IMG/VR virus record: IMGVR_UViG_3300030406_006644 | Location: 1-28,456 of that record | DNA length: 28,456 nt | Source: a virus | Reading direction: 5' to 3' (one strand) | Part shown: positions 10,383-20,128 of the stretch, piece after piece | Layout: every line of letters starts with the position of its first letter | Numbering within the stretch: position 1 is the stretch's first letter | Position numbers and translations under genes: made by a program | Notes under the pieces: generated by a model | Seen by the model: only the letters and a program-made list of their open reading frames with translations | Databases searched by the model: none | What the model was told of the DNA's origin: nothing

Positions 10383-11120
10383 CTACCATTGATGCTTACT
10401 GACAAGTGCGGATTGCCCGTCCTTGCTGAAAATAAATTTATTCTCATAAGTTTTTGTAATGTCATATGTGCCAAAATATTTTGTAAGCCACATACATTCG
10501 CTCATTGCTGATTCATCAATTTTAAATGCTTTTGTTTCTTTGATTACACTTTTAGTATCTCCAAACGCATGTAATTCAAATTTCAACGCACCAGCACCTT
10601 GTTTCTTTACTTCTATGATGTTGCTATGCATTTTAACTTCCATCATATTGAATTTGTCAAAGAAGTTCTTTGCTTCACCTATTTTAATTTCGTTGACTCT
10701 TTGCTCATATGCATCTGGTGTACTTGGAACAACTTCTTGCAGTGATCCACTCGAAACCATTGTAGGGTTCTGCCCTTTGTGATATGTGTATTCAAATTCT
10801 TCAATGTTTGTTAATTTTTTAAGATCTTCCAAAAAACTGATAATGTTGTTGATGACACCTTCTTGCCGGGCAAATTCAACAAACACTCTGTGTTTTCCAT
10901 CTTTCATTGTGCCTGGTGTGGCGTCTGCATCTAAAATAAATTTGTATCCTGTTTCAGCAAATCGTTCTAGATCTTTGGCTGGTGCAAGACTGTCGGCTTC
11001 AAATGCCAAAACCAAAATATTTTTGTCATCTCCCATTTTGGATTTGTATTGATCAATTGAAAAGCGATTTGAAATGACTCCTTCTAAATCACCTGCTTTA
11101 AGTCCTTCATTAAATTGCAT
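10383..11120 (-). CDS. Conserved T4-like phage protein, function unknown
   Basis: A 245-residue soluble protein. The N-terminal part (FSIDQYKSKMGDDKNILVLAF, then GYKFILDADATPG) resembles, from memory, a protein conserved across marine T4-like phages whose role is not established. The second half (from about residue 130) is mixed alpha/beta. I considered a sliding clamp (gp45) and saw no convincing match. It overlaps the gene upstream by 11 bases and the M15 peptidase start lies immediately after its stop, so the three form one late transcript from about 11603. Confidence 0.65.
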   Translation of the reverse strand: MQFNEGLKAGDLEGVISNRFSIDQYKSKMGDDKNILVLAFEADSLAPAKDLERFAETGYKFILDADATPGTMKDGKHRVFVEFARQEGVINNIISFLEDLKKLTNIEEFEYTYHKGQNPTMVSSGSLQEVVPSTPDAYEQRVNEIKIGEAKNFFDKFNMMEVKMHSNIIEVKKQGAGALKFELHAFGDTKSVIKETKAFKIDESAMSECMWLTKYFGTYDITKTYENKFIFSKDGQSALVSKHQW

Positions 11121-11952: not shown

Positions 11953-12216
11953 TTAGTTTTTGATAAAATTATCTATTGCATCAGCATAGTGCTGACGATA
12001 GTGTTGATATAATCTGTCATAGGACACTTCGGTGAGTCCTGGCATATGTGCTCTTACAACTTCTTCGTTTATGAGGTCAAGCACAATATTATAGTCTAAG
12101 ACTCTGGTTGGACCAATCTTTTTTTTGGACAATGTAACTAATTCATCAAATTTTTTATCTGGCTTCATTGTGTACTTCACACAGAAGAATCTTTTTTTAG
12201 CGTGTTTTTTACCCAT
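11953..12216 (-). CDS. Small basic protein downstream of gp44, function unknown
   Basis: An 87-residue protein starting MGKKHAKKRFFCVKYTMKP and ending with an Asp/Tyr/His-rich helix (DRLYQHYRQHYADAIDNF). It overlaps the end of gp44 by eight bases. In T4 the gene after 44 is 62, the small clamp loader subunit (187 residues), but I see no gp62 similarity and the length is half. It could be a lineage-specific replication protein. It converges with the plus-strand gene ending at 11952. Confidence 0.65.
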   Translation of the reverse strand: MGKKHAKKRFFCVKYTMKPDKKFDELVTLSKKKIGPTRVLDYNIVLDLINEEVVRAHMPGLTEVSYDRLYQHYRQHYADAIDNFIKN

Positions 12217-13135
12217 TCTGTAACCTGGCCAGTTTGATCATGACAGATGCAAGATTAATTTCTGGATCAGCAACAAACGAATGATCTACTAACCCTTGTT
12301 TGATTATCAGCACTGCTTTGTCCTGAGCATCCTCGTCTTTTGATATGATCTCAAGATTATCATACAGCCAACGATAAATTTCTTCACATTCTTCTGGACG
12401 TGCTTGGCTACAAACAAGTTTTCTTGCTTCATTAATTTTGCCTTGTTTGAACAATTCTACCATTTCTAATCTATAATCTTGTTGTCCGCTGTCGCCACTA
12501 GCAGGCGGCATAAGTTTGCCATCTCTGCAATTCTGTTGCACCATGTTGATGCATTTTCTCAGATCAGGATATGTCGCTTTTACATAAGTGTCCAGCGTGT
12601 CTATGTCCTGTTCCATTTGCTCTGCAATCAATATCTCTGCCACTCTTGCTGTGAATTCTGTTTTGTCAATTGTTTCCATATGAAAGCCTTGGCACCTTGA
12701 ATGCAGTGCAGGTATCACTCTATTGGGATAGTTGCATGTCAATATGAATCTTGCAGAAGTGTGAAACGCCTCCATCACACCACGCAGTGCCGCTTGTCCG
12801 TTTGGACTCATGTAGTCTGCCTCGTCCAACAACACATATTTGTATGCACCAAAAGGCATAATCTGTACAAAGTTATTGATCTTTTCTCTAACAGTATCAA
12901 CTGAATTTTCTCGTGAAGCATTTATTTCTAAGATGTCATAGCCACTGACATCCAGTTCATGGAAAAGCATTTTGGCTAAAGTAGTTTTACCCACGCCAGG
13001 AGCACCTGATAAAAGCAGATGTGGTATGCTTTTTTCCTTTATCCAAGATTCAATTTGTTTACGTTGTGCCTCATCTCGCACCACATACTCTTTCAATGTT
13101 TTTGGCCTATATTTTTCTACCCAAAGTTCTTTCAT
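12209..13135 (-). CDS. 44: Clamp loader large subunit, T4 gp44-like (AAA+/RFC family)
   Basis: A 308-residue AAA+ ATPase that loads the sliding clamp for phage DNA replication; T4 gp44 has 319. It begins ELWVEKYRPKTLKEYV, the RFC-type opening, followed by Walker A GAPGVGKT (44-51), Walker B VLLDEAD (101-107), the sensor-1 region ILTCNYP and the SRC motif (146-148) of the arginine finger. The C-terminal half is the helical collar. The ATG at 13135 overlaps the TGA of a 35-codon membrane protein gene by four bases, so translation is coupled. No gp45 clamp, gp62 or gp43 polymerase lies in the window. Confidence 0.93.
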   Translation of the reverse strand: MKELWVEKYRPKTLKEYVVRDEAQRKQIESWIKEKSIPHLLLSGAPGVGKTTLAKMLFHELDVSGYDILEINASRENSVDTVREKINNFVQIMPFGAYKYVLLDEADYMSPNGQAALRGVMEAFHTSARFILTCNYPNRVIPALHSRCQGFHMETIDKTEFTARVAEILIAEQMEQDIDTLDTYVKATYPDLRKCINMVQQNCRDGKLMPPASGDSGQQDYRLEMVELFKQGKINEARKLVCSQARPEECEEIYRWLYDNLEIISKDEDAQDKAVLIIKQGLVDHSFVADPEINLASVMIKLARLQNG

Positions 13136-13440: not shown

Positions 13441-14637
13441 TTATTTTTTATATTTTGCCGCTTCTTCTGAGCCACCTGTTGCAGTACCTTTACTGTAACT
13501 GTGAGCACCCATGCCAGCAAGTTCACCGTTCTGCACGATTAGGTATTGATTTCTGATCGGTGTGCCGTCAAAGAAACACTCTAGTATCTCTCTGACACCG
13601 TCAGCATATCTTGTCTGTGCTGATAGTGATGTTCCTGATGTGTGTGGTGTCATACCATGGTTTGGCATTGATCTCCAAACGTGATCATTTGGTGCCGGTT
13701 GTGGGAACCAAACGTCTCCTGCATAGCCAGACAGTTGTCCACTCTTTAATGCGTCAGCGATGGCTTCTCTGTTACAGATCTTGCCTCTCGCAGTGTTTAC
13801 AATGTAGGCACCTTTTTTCATCTTGCCTATCATTTCTGCATCAAATAAGTTTTCTGTCTCTGGGTGTAGTGGACAATTGATTGTCACAACGTCACACACT
13901 TTGACCATTGACTCAACTGATTCATGGAAAGTAAGATTTAACTCTTTCTCCACTGCTTCAGGTAATCTGTGTCTGTCAAAGTAATGTAGATGTACATCAA
14001 ATGGTTTCATTTTTCTCAAAGCATCAAGTCCTATTCTACCTGCGGCAACTGTACCGATGTGCATTCCTTCCACATCATAACTTCTCTGTACTGCGTCAGC
14101 AATGTTCCAACCACCTTCATTTACTATTCTGTGTTGGTTGTGATAGTCTCTGACCATTGAAACGATCATCATGACAATGTGTTCTGCAACTGATCTTGAA
14201 TTACAGTAGGTCACTTCCACAACATCAATCTTGTGGTCCATAGCCGCTTGTAAATCCACGTGATCAGATCCAATACCTGCCGTGATAGCCATTTTAAGGT
14301 TTTTTGCTTTTTCTATTTTTTCCCTTGTGAGATAGTAAGGAAAGAAAGGTTGTGATATAACAACGTCAGCGTCAACAATGTGTTTGTCGGCTTCGCAGTC
14401 GTCACCATCTTTACTAGAAGTCACAACTAATTCATGTCCTGCATCTTCTAAGAACTTTCTAAGTCCTAGTTCGCCCGACACACAACCTAGCAATTCACCT
14501 GCATTGAAATCTCTGCCTTTTGGTGATGGTAGCGTCATGCCATCTGGATACTTCTCTAACTTAGGGAGATCCGTAAGTGGATAACTCTCAGGCATTCCGC
14601 CTTTAGGGTCGTCATACAATACGCATAGTATTTTCAT
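13441..14637 (-). CDS. fdh: NAD-dependent formate dehydrogenase
   Basis: A 398-residue enzyme that oxidises formate to CO2 with NAD+. It aligns end to end, from memory, with the Pseudomonas sp. 101 enzyme (about 400 residues), even in numbering: Pro97 and Phe98 (SQPFFP), Ile122, Asn146 (YCNSRSV), NAD-binding VAAGRIG (197-203), Asp221 (YFDRHRLP), catalytic Arg284 (NTARGK), Gln313 (PQPAPNDH) and His332 (PHTSGT). The C-terminal lid (AGMGAHSYSKG, then GGSEEAAKYKK) is also kept. It is therefore FDH and not a phosphoglycerate dehydrogenase. Start at 14637 is supported by AGGAG and by the shared N-terminus. It lies between uvsE and the gp44 cluster, and looks intact and functional. Such a gene is striking in a phage. 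Confidence 0.97.
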   Translation of the reverse strand: MKILCVLYDDPKGGMPESYPLTDLPKLEKYPDGMTLPSPKGRDFNAGELLGCVSGELGLRKFLEDAGHELVVTSSKDGDDCEADKHIVDADVVISQPFFPYYLTREKIEKAKNLKMAITAGIGSDHVDLQAAMDHKIDVVEVTYCNSRSVAEHIVMMIVSMVRDYHNQHRIVNEGGWNIADAVQRSYDVEGMHIGTVAAGRIGLDALRKMKPFDVHLHYFDRHRLPEAVEKELNLTFHESVESMVKVCDVVTINCPLHPETENLFDAEMIGKMKKGAYIVNTARGKICNREAIADALKSGQLSGYAGDVWFPQPAPNDHVWRSMPNHGMTPHTSGTSLSAQTRYADGVREILECFFDGTPIRNQYLIVQNGELAGMGAHSYSKGTATGGSEEAAKYKK

Positions 14638-14657: not shown

Positions 14658-15695
14658 CTATATTATAGTATTTTCAACCCATTGTCTATATAATTGTTCG
14701 GCGGCCATGTTTTTTCCTTTGGCCTCTGTCTGAATATCAAAATTTTCTCTGAAACTCAGTGCCCAATCATTTACTTTTCTGTTTGGTAATAGATCTGAAT
14801 GTGCCCTCAGTTTTTGTTTCTTACAGCCACGTTCCAACAACATCTTAATATCATGCATCTCTGTGTGTGTCTTGTCACCTAAATTTGCCACTGCCAAGTG
14901 CTCATCTCGGGAATAAGAATAGTGCATAGTAGGACGTTGTCCACGCCACGAGTCTATCACACGTTTGACTCTGTCATCATTAGCATCAATATATTCTTCA
15001 TCTCTTATCCAGTGATGATGTATGTCCATTACCAGTGCCAAGTGTTTTTCCAATTCTAAACTGGCATCCAGTCCCCAACCCATTTCGTCATTTTCGATTG
15101 TGATCAAATTTCTTGCCTCAGGCGACAGTTTTGGAAGTGCATCTATAATGCCTTGCGGTCCACGTCTGCCTGAAATATGCACATTAATTTTGCAACCATC
15201 TTGGAATGTTTTGCCAAATCCCATCCAACGAGCCATATCTGCGTGATATTCAAATTCATCTATGCTACGATGTCTAATAAGTTCTGTTTCACTGCTCAAC
15301 ACACAGAATTGTCCAGGGTGGAAACTTATTTTCACATCTAACTTACGTGCCATATCACCAACAGGTTGGAAAATTCTTTCTAGATGTCTTTGTATGTGAG
15401 GCTGTTGCCACCAATTGATCCAGCCTGGTTCAGTGTATCCTTGTAGCATTTCACTACCAAGGCGCACCATTCTACGTTGCGGTGGCAGTGTACCAACACG
15501 TTCGATCAGCCTACGTGCCGCTGTTGCATTATGATTCATAATGTCCCATTGTCTTTGTTCAGCGTCTTCTGGATGTTCTCTCAGCCAACGCATTGTGGTT
15601 GATCGACCGTTCAATTCTCTGTCCTTGGCATTAACTTTCATTCCTCCAAATTCAGATCGATCGTTAAGCCATTTACAACAAAAACCTATACGCAT
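14658..15695 (-). CDS. uvsE: UV damage endonuclease UvsE
   Basis: A 345-residue TIM-barrel nuclease that nicks DNA 5' to UV photoproducts, a repair route independent of nucleotide excision. Family motifs are clear: MRIGFCCKW at the start, SFHPGQFCVLS, NVHISGRRG, ITIENDEMGWG, DIHHHWIRDEE and HYSYSRDEH, with the metal-binding His, Glu and Asp residues in place. The frame opens at 15713, but the ATG at 15695 matches the family N-terminus and stands six bases after a consensus -10. It precedes fdh by 20 bases. Sunlit-ocean phages commonly carry repair genes of this kind. Confidence 0.93.
   Translation of the reverse strand: MRIGFCCKWLNDRSEFGGMKVNAKDRELNGRSTTMRWLREHPEDAEQRQWDIMNHNATAARRLIERVGTLPPQRRMVRLGSEMLQGYTEPGWINWWQQPHIQRHLERIFQPVGDMARKLDVKISFHPGQFCVLSSETELIRHRSIDEFEYHADMARWMGFGKTFQDGCKINVHISGRRGPQGIIDALPKLSPEARNLITIENDEMGWGLDASLELEKHLALVMDIHHHWIRDEEYIDANDDRVKRVIDSWRGQRPTMHYSYSRDEHLAVANLGDKTHTEMHDIKMLLERGCKKQKLRAHSDLLPNRKVNDWALSFRENFDIQTEAKGKNMAAEQLYRQWVENTII
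14662..14688 (-). promoter_or_regulatory. Weak candidate promoter before formate dehydrogenase
   Basis: TATAAT (14667-14662) lies inside the last codons of uvsE, with TAGACA (14688-14683) 15 bases upstream. It would give a leader of roughly 18 bases containing the AGGAG Shine-Dalgarno. The spacer is short and the overlap with coding sequence constrains it, so this may be chance; fdh could be transcribed from the uvsE promoter alone. Confidence 0.35.
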
Positions 15696-15729
15696 ATGAA
15701 AATTATAACACAAATTAATAGATTGTCAA
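15696..15729 (-). promoter_or_regulatory. Consensus sigma70 promoter of uvsE, leaderless
   Basis: TTGACA (15729-15724), 16 bases, TATAAT (15707-15702), then six bases to the ATG at 15695, so +1 should be the A of ATG. Both hexamers are perfect. It shares ATTTGTGTTATAAT with the promoter at 208-241. Confidence 0.78.
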
Positions 15730-16392: not shown

Positions 16393-17080
16393 AATTTATT
16401 TGATCTTTTATAGATATCACCCAATCCTTATATACACTGTTTAGGAAATGGCATCCGTCCTGCTGTAACCCGTTGTGTTGAGCACAATATGAATGCGGGT
16501 CTTTATCTATCCAATTTGTTTTGTCCAATAGAGTAGGAAAGACTTCAACCTTGCCATCATATAATTCTTGATCTGAAGTAGCAGGATTAGTGATGTCATA
16601 AAAAAATGTCCAATTGTGTGGCACGTTTTGTTGTTTTAAAAACCATAATGTGCTGGCCACTGCTTGAATACTTTCTTTTGCCACGTGTTCATATTCTTGA
16701 TCATTAAAGTAGCAAGGCATAAAAATTTCATTTGTTCTATCATTGCCAGTCCAACTGCCTGTTTTGCCACCTGAACACAAATATCTTCGTTTGTAAGTTT
16801 TTATGCAGTAATCATAATCTGGAATAGCATAATTGTCATTAGCAGGTATATCAAATCTTGCCAATCCTGTAAATTGTGCATATACATAATCGATTTTGTT
16901 ATCTGTGACAAAGTCTACACAATTCCCAAATATAAATTGATTGCCCACACCCCACCAAGACAAATTCACAATGTCTGTGTCTTGTCCAAAAACAACATCT
17001 TTCCAGATTTGTTCTTTGTTTGGTTTTTGATTATCGTCTGCTAGATTGCTACAACCTAAAAATAGTATTTTTTTAGTCAT
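16382..17080 (-). CDS. SGNH/GDSL-hydrolase-like protein, putative
   Basis: A 232-residue protein that resembles small phage SGNH proteins: block I ILFLGCSNLA with Ser11 (GCS in place of GDS), a Gly/Asn block WWGVGNQF (42-49) and, near the C-terminus, DGCHFLNSVYKDW with Asp208 and His211 as the catalytic pair. Such hydrolases act on esters of lipids or sugars, including polysaccharide acetyl groups. Catalytic residues are placed correctly, but similarity is low and a non-enzymatic role is possible. It overlaps the co-chaperonin gene by eight bases. Confidence 0.6.
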   Translation of the reverse strand: MTKKILFLGCSNLADDNQKPNKEQIWKDVVFGQDTDIVNLSWWGVGNQFIFGNCVDFVTDNKIDYVYAQFTGLARFDIPANDNYAIPDYDYCIKTYKRRYLCSGGKTGSWTGNDRTNEIFMPCYFNDQEYEHVAKESIQAVASTLWFLKQQNVPHNWTFFYDITNPATSDQELYDGKVEVFPTLLDKTNWIDKDPHSYCAQHNGLQQDGCHFLNSVYKDWVISIKDQINYER

Positions 17081-17516
17081 TACCTGGCAGTGCCGTCATC
17101 TGTTTCATTCCGCCAGTGTTGATGTAACCTGCTTGTTTTCTGTTGTGTGCAGGCTCTTCTTCGGAGGTTAGTAAGATGTCATTTTCGTCAATCATTCTAA
17201 CTTCTAGTTCTACACCACCTTTGGCCACCTTGAATGCTCTGGACCATCTACCGTGTGCGACCATAATCCATTCGCCTACTTTCACATCTTCTTGTTGTTT
17301 ACCTACAGCATAAACTTTGGCCCAACGCGGATGTACACCTTGTGATGTCCCGTCATCATCAGGGATAATCAAACCACCTGCTGTTTTGGTTTCTCCAAAA
17401 TGCATGTGTGATACCAACACTCTTTTTTTCAACGGTGTGATATCGTAATCAATAACGGTTTGTTTACCACCGTGTGTTCCAAAACCTTTTTCTTGTAAGT
17501 CTTCTATTTGTCCCAT
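17073..17516 (-). CDS. GroES-like co-chaperonin (T4 gp31 role)
   Basis: A 147-residue protein with a GroES fold in its middle: ITPLKKRVLVSHMHF, a mobile-loop region GETKTAGGLIIPDD (41-54) that should contact GroEL, then WAKVYAVGKQ, VKVGEWIMVAHG and MIDENDILL. In T4 the equivalent gp31 replaces GroES to fold the capsid protein, and marine T4-like phages often carry such a GroES relative. N- and C-terminal extensions of about 25 and 30 residues go beyond bacterial GroES. A sigma70-like promoter precedes it with an eight-base gap to the ATG. Confidence 0.82.
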   Translation of the reverse strand: MGQIEDLQEKGFGTHGGKQTVIDYDITPLKKRVLVSHMHFGETKTAGGLIIPDDDGTSQGVHPRWAKVYAVGKQQEDVKVGEWIMVAHGRWSRAFKVAKGGVELEVRMIDENDILLTSEEEPAHNRKQAGYINTGGMKQMTALPGND

Positions 17517-17739: not shown

Positions 17740-18129
17740 TTACTCTATTCCGTCCAATGCCGCATCAATGCCTTTTTTGGCAGTCTGTTTTGGCTTGACT
17801 TGTTTAGTTGCTCTCGGTGTTGGAGCAGGTTTGGTTTCAACTGCTTTTGCCTGTGGAGTAGGTGCTGGTGGAGTTTTACTCGGTGCAGGTGCTCTGTTTC
17901 TAGTTGGTGTGTCGTCAACTTTACCACGAGGTGCCTCATAGTATTTCTTCATTACTTCTGCTTTTGGTTGAACAATTTGTCCTTTGATACCTAGTTCGTC
18001 GCCTCTTGCATTAACATTCATATTACCAATTGCTCTTGTGTCCTCATTGGCCGCTCTTAATTTTTCAATGTCAATCATCTTGCCTTGCATTGTTCTATAC
18101 ATTTTTTTTCTGGGTGCTCTTGCTACCAT
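17740..18129 (-). CDS. Phage protein with low-complexity C-terminus
   Basis: A 129-residue protein. The N-terminal half (KKMYRTMQGKMIDIEKLRAA, NMNVNARGDELG) resembles a protein I recall from marine T4-like phages, of unknown function; the C-terminal half is Pro/Ala/Thr/Lys-rich (about residues 70-115) and probably disordered. AGGAG stands seven bases before the ATG at 18129. It follows the DNA polymerase III-like gene by about 27 bases. A virion-associated or assembly role is possible; I am not sure. Confidence 0.65.
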   Translation of the reverse strand: MVARAPRKKMYRTMQGKMIDIEKLRAANEDTRAIGNMNVNARGDELGIKGQIVQPKAEVMKKYYEAPRGKVDDTPTRNRAPAPSKTPPAPTPQAKAVETKPAPTPRATKQVKPKQTAKKGIDAALDGIE

Positions 18130-18156: not shown

Positions 18157-18678
18157 TCATCGCAGAAATTCACGGTGATCCAAATTGTACAACAACGGAT
18201 TTATCTTGTGTACTCCTATCAAAAAAAGACAGAAACTGGCCACACTTGATCCTCTGCCCACACCCCATACAACATTGTTGGCTCTCAGTGTGTCAACAAA
18301 GTATATCAAAAATTGCAACACTTTGATAAAACTTTTTTGCTCAAACAGATCATACTCGTGCTGTACTCTTAGTTTCTCTTCGTCATTTTGGCACTTGTCC
18401 AACAACCATTGCAGAACATTTATTTTGTAGTATTTTTCTGGCATGTGCCAACTGTTAATGTTCTTAGTATCAAATTCAGTCAGTGACTCTCTGTGTGGCA
18501 CTGTATTAATATTTGGTAAATCAATGCCTAAGTCTTTAATACTTGTTTTATACTGTTCAGTGTCCGCAAAAAACAATTTAGAAATATCAAACTCAGGATC
18601 TGTGTAAAGTAAATCTATTGCGTCTTGCTCAGTGAATATAACATCACCATAATCATTTGTTTTTATCTTTGCCGCCAT
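18157..18678 (-). CDS. DNA polymerase III alpha (C-family) fragment-like protein
   Basis: A 173-residue protein whose last 60 residues match the start of the palm of bacterial replicative polymerase DnaE: LQFLIYFVDTLRANNVVWG, then GRGSSVASF (141-149) and IGVHKINPLLYNLDHREF. In DnaE this GS motif contacts the dNTP triphosphate, and the catalytic aspartates follow just downstream. Here the protein stops at REFLR, so the catalytic DxD and the rest of the polymerase are missing. The following bases do not continue it in any frame. I recall similar short proteins in T4-like phages, so it is probably a stable family, not debris. It could bind nucleotides or interfere with host replication; function unknown. 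Confidence 0.75.
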   Translation of the reverse strand: MAAKIKTNDYGDVIFTEQDAIDLLYTDPEFDISKLFFADTEQYKTSIKDLGIDLPNINTVPHRESLTEFDTKNINSWHMPEKYYKINVLQWLLDKCQNDEEKLRVQHEYDLFEQKSFIKVLQFLIYFVDTLRANNVVWGVGRGSSVASFCLFLIGVHKINPLLYNLDHREFLR

Positions 18679-19288
18679 CTAAAACCTTTGGGTTGAATTC
18701 AAATATTTTAGCATGGTCTTCGTGGCGTTTGTCAACTGGTATTTTGTTTTTGGTCCAACTGAAGTGTCCTGTGTAGATGCCTTTGTCCAATTCTTGATCA
18801 TATGTTGCTGTGTCTGGTCTTAACCACCAAGGATCAAAGTTTGCAAACTTTTCTGAGAACCAATTGGCAGTGTCTAATAATAACAGTTCTTTACTGTCTT
18901 TGTCAACCGAATAGGTAATACCGTCGCCTTGCCAACTGCTCAATTCCAATTTGTTTATCAATATTTTTCCATCCATTATGGTATTTGCTTTGCAAAAATT
19001 CACTGCGGCCATAATTTGATCATAGGGAGGTTTTGGTAATTCAATAAATCTATTTGACGATGACTCTTTTAAAAGATGATAGAGTGGTTCCTGCCTCCAT
19101 GTTGTAATTGTATTTGCAAAAATTTGTTCAAATAAATTTTTTAATCTGTCAAAATATTTTGTTTGCTCTTGTAGATCTGCTGTGTAAGGAGTAAGATAAA
19201 GTTTTACACTGTACTCGTTTTGAAATAATTCTCCGTCAACAATTATAATTGATTTGTATTTGGTACGCCACGTGAATGTATTTGCCAT
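18653..19288 (-). CDS. Unknown phage protein
   Basis: A 211-residue protein I cannot place (SIIIVDGELFQNEYSVKLYL, DGKILINKLELSSWQGDG, DPWWLRPDTATYDQ). It looks soluble and Trp/Tyr-rich. The frame also has a GTG at 19291, but the ATG at 19288 is likelier. Its 3' end overlaps the start of the polymerase-like gene by 26 bases. Confidence 0.6.
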   Translation of the reverse strand: MANTFTWRTKYKSIIIVDGELFQNEYSVKLYLTPYTADLQEQTKYFDRLKNLFEQIFANTITTWRQEPLYHLLKESSSNRFIELPKPPYDQIMAAVNFCKANTIMDGKILINKLELSSWQGDGITYSVDKDSKELLLLDTANWFSEKFANFDPWWLRPDTATYDQELDKGIYTGHFSWTKNKIPVDKRHEDHAKIFEFNPKVLDGGKDKNK

Positions 19289-19300
19289 CACAAATACTTA

Positions 19301-19564: not shown

Positions 19565-20128
19565 TTAGATGTAGTTGTTTCCTAACTGGTGCATTAAAAT
19601 TGTTGTGCCATTATCAGGCGACATAAACTCATATAGATATCTACCCGAAGTTGGTGCAGTAATTGTGTCTGAACTGCCATCACCACCGCTTACATTACCA
19701 GATACTATTACACTAGATGGTATGGTAAGTGTGTCTGCTACTGCGTTATATGTTATATCTAAAATAATTCTGCCTAGTTCTCCACTAGTTGGAAAATTTA
19801 TAAACCCGAGAGAGATTGCCCCACTAGTGGTCATGGTTTGGTAATGACCGTTTTCATGATTCAAATTTACTATGCCTGAAACTGTGCCATGAGCAAAGAC
19901 AGTTGCAGATGTGTCTTTAAGAACTGCTCTTTTTATAATATTGTCGGTAAAATCAGATTCAGCATTTAAATTGGCTTTGTTTGTTTGCAAATCTTCAATT
20001 TCAGTTTTGGCTTCTGTAAATGCAGTTTTAATAGCAGTGAAATTATCACGCATTCCTTGACTACTGTTGTCTTGTCCTGCTACAGGATATGTTCCATCAA
20101 TATTGTTTGTTTCAATTTTACTAGCCAT
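19565..20128 (-). CDS. Fibre-like structural protein
   Basis: A 187-residue protein with an N-terminal module (IETNNIDGTYPVAGQDNSSQ, then RDNFTAIKTAF) that resembles the N-terminal motif of the larger fibre paralogs, a short helical linker (about 35-55) and a beta-rich, Ser/Thr/Gly-rich rest. The ATG shares a base with the stop of the 847-residue gene (TAATG). A late octamer 30 bases upstream and AAAGGAA give an SD-dependent late start. It could be a short tail fibre or fibre tip. Confidence 0.65.
   Translation of the reverse strand: MASKIETNNIDGTYPVAGQDNSSQGMRDNFTAIKTAFTEAKTEIEDLQTNKANLNAESDFTDNIIKRAVLKDTSATVFAHGTVSGIVNLNHENGHYQTMTTSGAISLGFINFPTSGELGRIILDITYNAVADTLTIPSSVIVSGNVSGGDGSSDTITAPTSGRYLYEFMSPDNGTTILMHQLGNNYI

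What the first reader, a model, noticed from the sequence alone, without database searches (positions are those of the whole stretch)
18157..18678. Stand-alone start of a DnaE palm, ending before the catalytic aspartates
Seen: the GRGSS nucleotide-contact motif and flanking helices of C-family polymerases, then a stop at REFLR, with no continuation downstream. It uses normal codons and an SD, and overlaps its upstream gene. Inferred: a domesticated domain that binds nucleotides or replisome parts, perhaps displacing or inhibiting host DnaE. Phage replication here is of the T4 type, so a polymerase III piece has no evident own-replication role.
Basis: partly seen in the sequence, partly recalled or inferred. 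Interest (0 to 1): 0.62.

Follow-up and report, generated by a model that had tools for sequence, protein, structure and literature searches.

The report
Half of a split phage polymerase
This small marine-phage gene is the front half of a stripped-down bacterial-type DNA polymerase whose catalytic half is a separate gene elsewhere in related phage genomes; this two-gene enzyme was described in 2021 in giant phages but, as far as I found, has never been tested.

Summary
ORF 18157-18678 (- strand, 173 aa) is a real gene: DnaE-like over residues 77-173, GRGSS present, stop at REFLR, no continuation. The early stop is conserved: EFL[RK] within 0-4 residues of the end in essentially all of 140 relatives, GRGSS in all 140, dN/dS about 0.08.

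The stand-alone-inhibitor reading is not supported. Related phages carry the missing half as a second gene (PHROG 11778, ~195 aa) beside gp61/gp41/UvsW. It usually begins within a few residues of the catalytic motif (M-P-D-V-D-I-D-F) and keeps all three catalytic aspartates and the lysine. Predicted structures tile E. coli alpha: N piece 278-393, C piece 400-794. The PHP domain and the region C-terminal to residue ~794 are absent, and the thumb region appears deleted. Of 60 isolate records with the C piece, 59 also have the N piece; the exception is a short, probably incomplete record.

This is the "minimal, split Pol III alpha" of group 2.2 jumbo phages (Iyer et al. 2021, PMC7824862). The window is a new, uncultivated marine member. 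Most likely the halves assemble into one nucleotidyltransferase active site serving phage replication beside gp43. The C piece is not shown in the window's own clade, because its contigs (up to 172 kb) lack the helicase-primase block.

The parts
18157..18678 (-). N-terminal subunit of a split minimal Pol III alpha (PHROG 11127), 173 aa
18244..18258 (-). GRGSS motif (residues 141-145), equivalent of E. coli alpha 361-365, nucleotide-contact motif; conserved in 140 of 140 relatives
18157..18171 (-). conserved end EFLR plus TGA stop; aligns with E. coli alpha residues up to N393, 7 residues before D401
18653..18678 (-). 26-nt overlap with the upstream gene
18653..19291 (-). upstream gene, 212 aa, no family match; weak relatives in the corresponding position in Phosso (28.7%) and PA5oct-type phages (24%)
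17740..18129 (-). downstream gene, PHROG 14844 (E 2e-8); same family follows the N piece in phage 121Q
17073..17516 (-). GroES-like co-chaperonin, part of the conserved neighbourhood (also in 121Q and Phosso)
12209..13135 (-). clamp loader large subunit (T4 gp44 type), 53% to PA5oct-group phages, which carry both halves

Best explanation
The gene encodes the N-terminal subunit of a two-gene, minimal C-family (Pol III alpha) nucleotidyltransferase. Shown: the N piece corresponds to alpha 278-393 (palm helices and the GRGS motif); a separate gene in related phages (C piece, PHROG 11778) corresponds to alpha 400-794 (catalytic D401, D403, K553, D555 equivalents and the proximal fingers with RP and KSH motifs); only about six residues are missing at the split. 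Inferred: the two proteins fold together in trans into one active site, N contacting the dNTP phosphates and C holding the two metal ions and template/dNTP, and act as an accessory polymerase in the phage replisome beside the family B polymerase gp43, for example in primer extension, lagging-strand or gap-filling synthesis. Lacking PHP, beta-binding, OB and tau-binding domains, and probably the thumb, it would need phage partners for DNA binding and processivity.
For: Complementary split: most C pieces start 0-6 residues before the D-x-D-I-D motif, typically M-P-D-V-D-I-D-F matching alpha M399-F406, and N pieces stop at the alpha-393 equivalent. Catalytic set complete across the pair: GRGSS in 140/140 N pieces; D[VI]DID and K-x-D in 222/222 C ORFs selected by motif; D, D, K and D are also invariant in A1 and A6. 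Structural tiling: N Z 7.7-12.6 on C-family polymerases over alpha ~278-393; C Z 6.3-9.9 over alpha 400-794. Co-occurrence: 59 of 60 listed isolate records with C also have N; 10 of 10 isolate genomes searched by profile; same-contig pairs in 10 further large viral contigs. Neighbourhoods: N near clamp loader gp44 and GroES, C beside gp61, gp41, UvsW. Strong purifying selection on N. Published independently for group 2.2 jumbo phages (PMC7824862).
Against: No C piece found on any contig of the window's own clade: 23 contigs, then G049-G053 and others, then G091 (137 kb) and G092 (172 kb). The contigs checked also lack gp41, gp61 and UvsW, so absence is uninformative, not evidence of presence. 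The complex was not modelled; trans assembly is inferred. Activity is unknown, and deletion of the thumb region would weaken duplex binding.
Confidence: 0.72

Rival explanations
1. Solo effector: the N piece alone binds host DnaE, clamp or tau and blocks or redirects the host replisome.
For: In the window's clade no C piece has been found on contigs up to 172 kb. The fragment is well folded on its own in prediction and has a private N-terminal part (residues 1-74) without a match in the alignment to PDB chains.
Against: In sequenced relatives the complementary half co-occurs almost always and keeps its catalytic residues. The most conserved part is the active-site half, dN/dS 0.047. GRGSS and the end of the protein are equally conserved in clades with and without a located C piece.
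Confidence: 0.12
2. The pair assembles but is not a DNA polymerase: a thumbless two-chain nucleotidyltransferase used for another reaction, such as end labelling, primer making or nucleotide sensing.
For: The C profile has ~71 positions between the alpha-420 and alpha-594 equivalents against 174 in alpha, spanning the thumb, and ~23 against 111 before the KSH motif. The phages already have a family B polymerase. All catalytic residues are kept.
Against: Finger motifs RP and KSH and the link to primase, helicase and clamp-loader genes fit template-directed synthesis.
Confidence: 0.13
3. Truncated remnant of a once complete polymerase, a decaying gene.
For: It lacks catalytic residues.
Against: Conserved stop and length in 140 relatives, strong purifying selection, SD-like site, found in deeply diverged phages.
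Confidence: 0.01
4. The pieces are joined by protein splicing (split intein) or trans-spliced RNA into one chain.
For: Split DnaE joined by an intein exists in cyanobacteria (established knowledge), and the gap here is only about six residues.
Against: N pieces end 0-4 residues after EFL[RK] and C pieces start within a few residues of the motif, leaving no room for intein halves. Genes lie 11-224 kb apart on the isolate records checked. RNA trans-splicing was not tested.
Confidence: 0.02

Closest known systems
Split minimal DNA polymerase III alpha of group 2.2 jumbo phages (Iyer et al. 2021, PMC7824862); PHROG 11127 (N) and PHROG 11778 (C)
   Same: Same family of N subunit, same length, same end point, T4-type phage with a family B polymerase; partner gene distant in the genome in relatives.
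   Different: Window is from an uncultivated marine lineage, 35-46% identical to isolate N pieces; its C piece is not yet located. The family is not confined to jumbo genomes: Alishewanella phage Slicko01 (141 kb, described as complete) has both halves.
Bacterial DnaE / E. coli Pol III alpha (PDB 2HNH, 5FKV) and PolC (3F2B)
   Same: Palm fold over residues 77-173, GRGS motif.
   Different: No PHP, no catalytic aspartates in this chain, no fingers, beta-binding, OB or tau-binding parts; about 20% identity.
CBB_328 of Pectobacterium phage vB_PcaM_CBB (PMC5259590)
   Same: 172-aa truncated Pol III alpha relative reported in 2017.
   Different: Reported only as truncated; the partner gene is not mentioned in the passages read.
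Compact unsplit C-family polymerases of phages (PHROG 405/11165 type, ~560 aa)
   Same: Same palm motifs and similarly reduced architecture.
   Different: Single chain with complete PF07733 and a finger domain; found on some contigs together with a C piece.

Membership tests
Phage split minimal Pol III alpha, N subunit | C-family palm segment with GRGSS, ending before the catalytic aspartates | tested here: met
Phage split minimal Pol III alpha, N subunit | Early stop conserved across relatives, about 170 aa | tested here: met
Phage split minimal Pol III alpha, N subunit | Separate C subunit gene with catalytic aspartates in related phages | tested here: met
Phage split minimal Pol III alpha, N subunit | C subunit gene present in the window's own genome or clade | tested here: inconclusive
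   Not on contigs up to 172 kb, which also lack the gp41/gp61/UvsW block
Phage split minimal Pol III alpha, N subunit | T4-type replication genes with a family B polymerase | tested here: met
   gp44 in the window; PolB about 30 kb downstream of N on clade contigs G049, G091, G092
Phage split minimal Pol III alpha, N subunit | Physical assembly with the C subunit and catalytic activity | not testable with these tools
   needs purified proteins; no complex model could be run
Full-length C-family DNA polymerase (DnaE/PolC) | Catalytic aspartates D401/D403/D555, fingers and PHP domain in one chain | tested here: not met
Split-intein DnaE | Intein halves fused to the two fragments | tested here: not met
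   N pieces end 0-4 residues after EFL[RK]; C pieces start within a few residues of the motif
Host polymerase inhibitor | Binds and inhibits host DnaE, clamp or tau | not testable with these tools
   no interaction data

The most novel reading that the evidence does not exclude
A thumbless two-chain C-family enzyme that works as a dedicated primer-extension or gap-filling polymerase, handing short products to the phage's own family B polymerase: a phage division of labour resembling Pol alpha / Pol delta.
Probability: 0.2. Interest if true: 0.72.

Novelty: new member of a known kind. Interest (0 to 1): 0.45.

Why it matters
Splitting the polymerase palm next to its catalytic aspartates, with the halves in separate gene clusters, is unusual, and I found no experimental paper on it in the library searched. 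The family is large: hundreds of marine and freshwater viral contigs plus isolates on E. coli, Klebsiella, Salmonella and Pseudomonas. It is therefore directly testable in laboratory phages such as 121Q or Paride, and could show why T4-type phages keep a second, bacterial-type polymerase core. Iyer et al. also propose it as a model of ancestral Pol III. A marine survey (PMC9123017) listed PF07733 as the only group-specific gene found in at least half (51.9%) of its PGC_A phages; this short N piece is a plausible, untested source of that signal.

Tried and rejected
(1) Chance or pseudogene: rejected by the conserved stop, selection and family matches. (2) Continuation downstream in another frame: none in 80 loci. 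(3) A second PF07733 gene in complete relatives: none in four genomes; the weak PF17657 hits below cut-off turned out to be the C piece. (4) Linking the C piece to the window's own clade by contig overlap and walking: failed. One apparent link (L309/G051) was a shared sugar-gene cassette; a 485-aa match taken for helicase gp41 looked by sequence like a carbamoyltransferase; thyX homologues sit in different neighbourhoods in N and C contigs. Ten N-clade contigs are colinear but contain none of gp41, gp61, UvsW or C. (5) Sample overlap of N and C clades is suggestive only. (6) Split intein: rejected. (7) Literature searches for experimental work found none. (8) In an early notebook entry I called the gene at 10383-11120 gp45-like; PHROG matches it to a virion structural family, so I withdraw that.

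Full report
OBSERVATION. The ORF exists exactly as described, on the minus strand: 18678 down to 18157, ATG to TGA, 173 aa. It has an SD-like AAAGG six bases before the start and overlaps its upstream gene by 26 nt. Pfam PF07733 matches residues 94-172 at 8.4e-11, and PHROG 11127, a 171-aa family labelled DNA polymerase, matches residues 8-173 to the end of its profile at 5e-46. GRGSS is at residues 141-145. In E. coli alpha the equivalent motif is at 361, the aligned end is FERFLN 388-393, and the first catalytic aspartate is D401.

CONSERVATION. In the 80 loci first examined the stop is conserved and no reading continues (one locus is cut by its contig end). Over 140 relatives, many of them only 35 to 65% identical, GRGSS is present in all 140 and the protein ends at EFL[RK] or a close variant plus 0-4 residues. 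Median dN/dS in the close clade is 0.078, and 0.047 in the DnaE-like part. This is a maintained gene, not a truncation.

THE OTHER HALF. Isolate genomes carry the N piece: Salicola phage SCTP-2, Sinorhizobium phage Phosso, Agrobacterium phage Atu_ph07, Pseudomonas phages of the PA5oct/Paride group, and E. coli, Klebsiella and Salmonella phages of the 121Q/RaK2/Munch type. None of four searched has a second PF07733 gene, but two gave sub-threshold PF17657 (finger) hits in ~200-aa genes near primase and helicase. These belong to PHROG 11778 and are 43% identical to each other. They begin with the DnaE catalytic motif (TDIDIDF) and continue with K-x-D, the RP motif and an F-K-K-x-H motif. Across 222 ORFs chosen by motif, D[VI]DID and K-x-D are always present, and most start 0-6 residues before the motif. 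The same residues are invariant in alignment A1 (13 sequences, fetched by homology) and in A6 (62 sequences). In the commonest form, M-P-D-V-D-I-D-F, the start methionine aligns with alpha M399. The two genes therefore break the polymerase between alpha residues 393 and about 399.

CO-OCCURRENCE. All 10 isolate genomes tested by profile have both halves. By tblastn, 59 of the 60 listed isolate records with a C piece also have the N piece; the exception is a 109-kb Klebsiella record, much shorter than its ~345-kb relatives. N and C also share single contigs of 364, 223, 181 and 66 kb and six others. Where checked on isolates they lie on the same strand, 11 to 224 kb apart. The N piece sits with GroES and clamp loader gp44, the C piece with gp61, gp41 and UvsW.

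STRUCTURE. AlphaFold models are confident (mean pLDDT 90.5 for the window's N piece, 89.3 for a marine C piece). Foldseek's best PDB matches for both are all C-family polymerases. VIA-align 2 places N residues 77-173 on alpha 278-393 (best Z 12.6, rmsd 2.1, 93 aligned) and C residues 1-196 on alpha 400-794 (best Z 9.9, rmsd 3.5, 195 aligned). By profile alignment the C piece is about 100 residues shorter than alpha between 420 and 594, which spans the thumb (433-510 by the published domain borders, from memory), and about 88 shorter between 641 and 752. N residues 1-74 have no match in that alignment.

THE WINDOW'S OWN CLADE. The gp44 of the window is closest to the PA5oct group (53%), which carries both halves. 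Contigs of the window's clade are colinear around N over about 100 kb and carry a family B polymerase about 30 kb downstream. None of those examined, up to 172 kb, carries the C piece, but the ten compared and the two largest also lack gp41, gp61 and UvsW. The C contigs used as a positive control have helicase and primase beside it. The C locus is therefore probably outside the assembled part, but this is inference.

INTERPRETATION. The pair holds every residue of a C-family active site, divided between two chains; conservation of both parts argues for assembly in trans into one nucleotidyltransferase. Its job is inferred: an accessory polymerase beside gp43, needing phage partners for DNA binding.

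KNOWN OR NEW. Iyer et al. [quoted passage not shown] The CBB genome paper (PMC5259590) noticed the truncated N piece in 2017, and a marine survey (PMC9123017) noted PF07733 in its largest jumbo phages. The window adds an uncultivated marine lineage, and this report adds residue-level tiling, conservation counts, selection data and a 141-kb phage with both halves. The kind is known; the function is untested as far as the searched library shows.

Noticed in passing
L245:16013-17701 and L247:15248-16927 (contigs G042, G077): Some marine contigs with a C piece also carry, about 5 kb downstream, an unsplit compact C-family polymerase (~560 aa, complete PF07733 plus finger domain, no PHP).
   Followed up: partly
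window 19565-28101: Four tail-like proteins on the minus strand begin with the same motif (N-D-G-T-G-D type), probably paralogues.
   Followed up: no
window 2439-6444 and 17073-17516: Protein-quality genes cluster here: Clp-type protease/ATPase (2439-4781), peptide deformylase-like (4953-5486), DnaJ-like (5602-6444), GroES-like (17073-17516).
   Followed up: partly
window 13441-14637 and 14658-15713: A probable NAD-dependent formate dehydrogenase (by sequence reading) next to a UV-damage endonuclease-like gene (PHROG 8420). A 398-aa gene in the same position is near-identical between contigs G003 and G004 and missing from the other colinear relatives.
   Followed up: partly
G049:87615-94016 and G050:37431-43826 (L489, L492-L493): An array of consecutive paralogous radical-SAM-like genes conserved between two marine contigs of the window's clade.
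   Followed up: no
L309:14685-20035 and G051:28526-33968: A cassette of sugar or nucleotide-sugar genes shared by two phages, inserted beside gp41 in one and beside the N piece in the other.
   Followed up: partly
PHROG 13169 (463 aa) and PHROG 7513 (461 aa): Two other phage families match this gene near their own C-terminal ends, so other phages may also split or truncate DnaE near this point.
   Followed up: no
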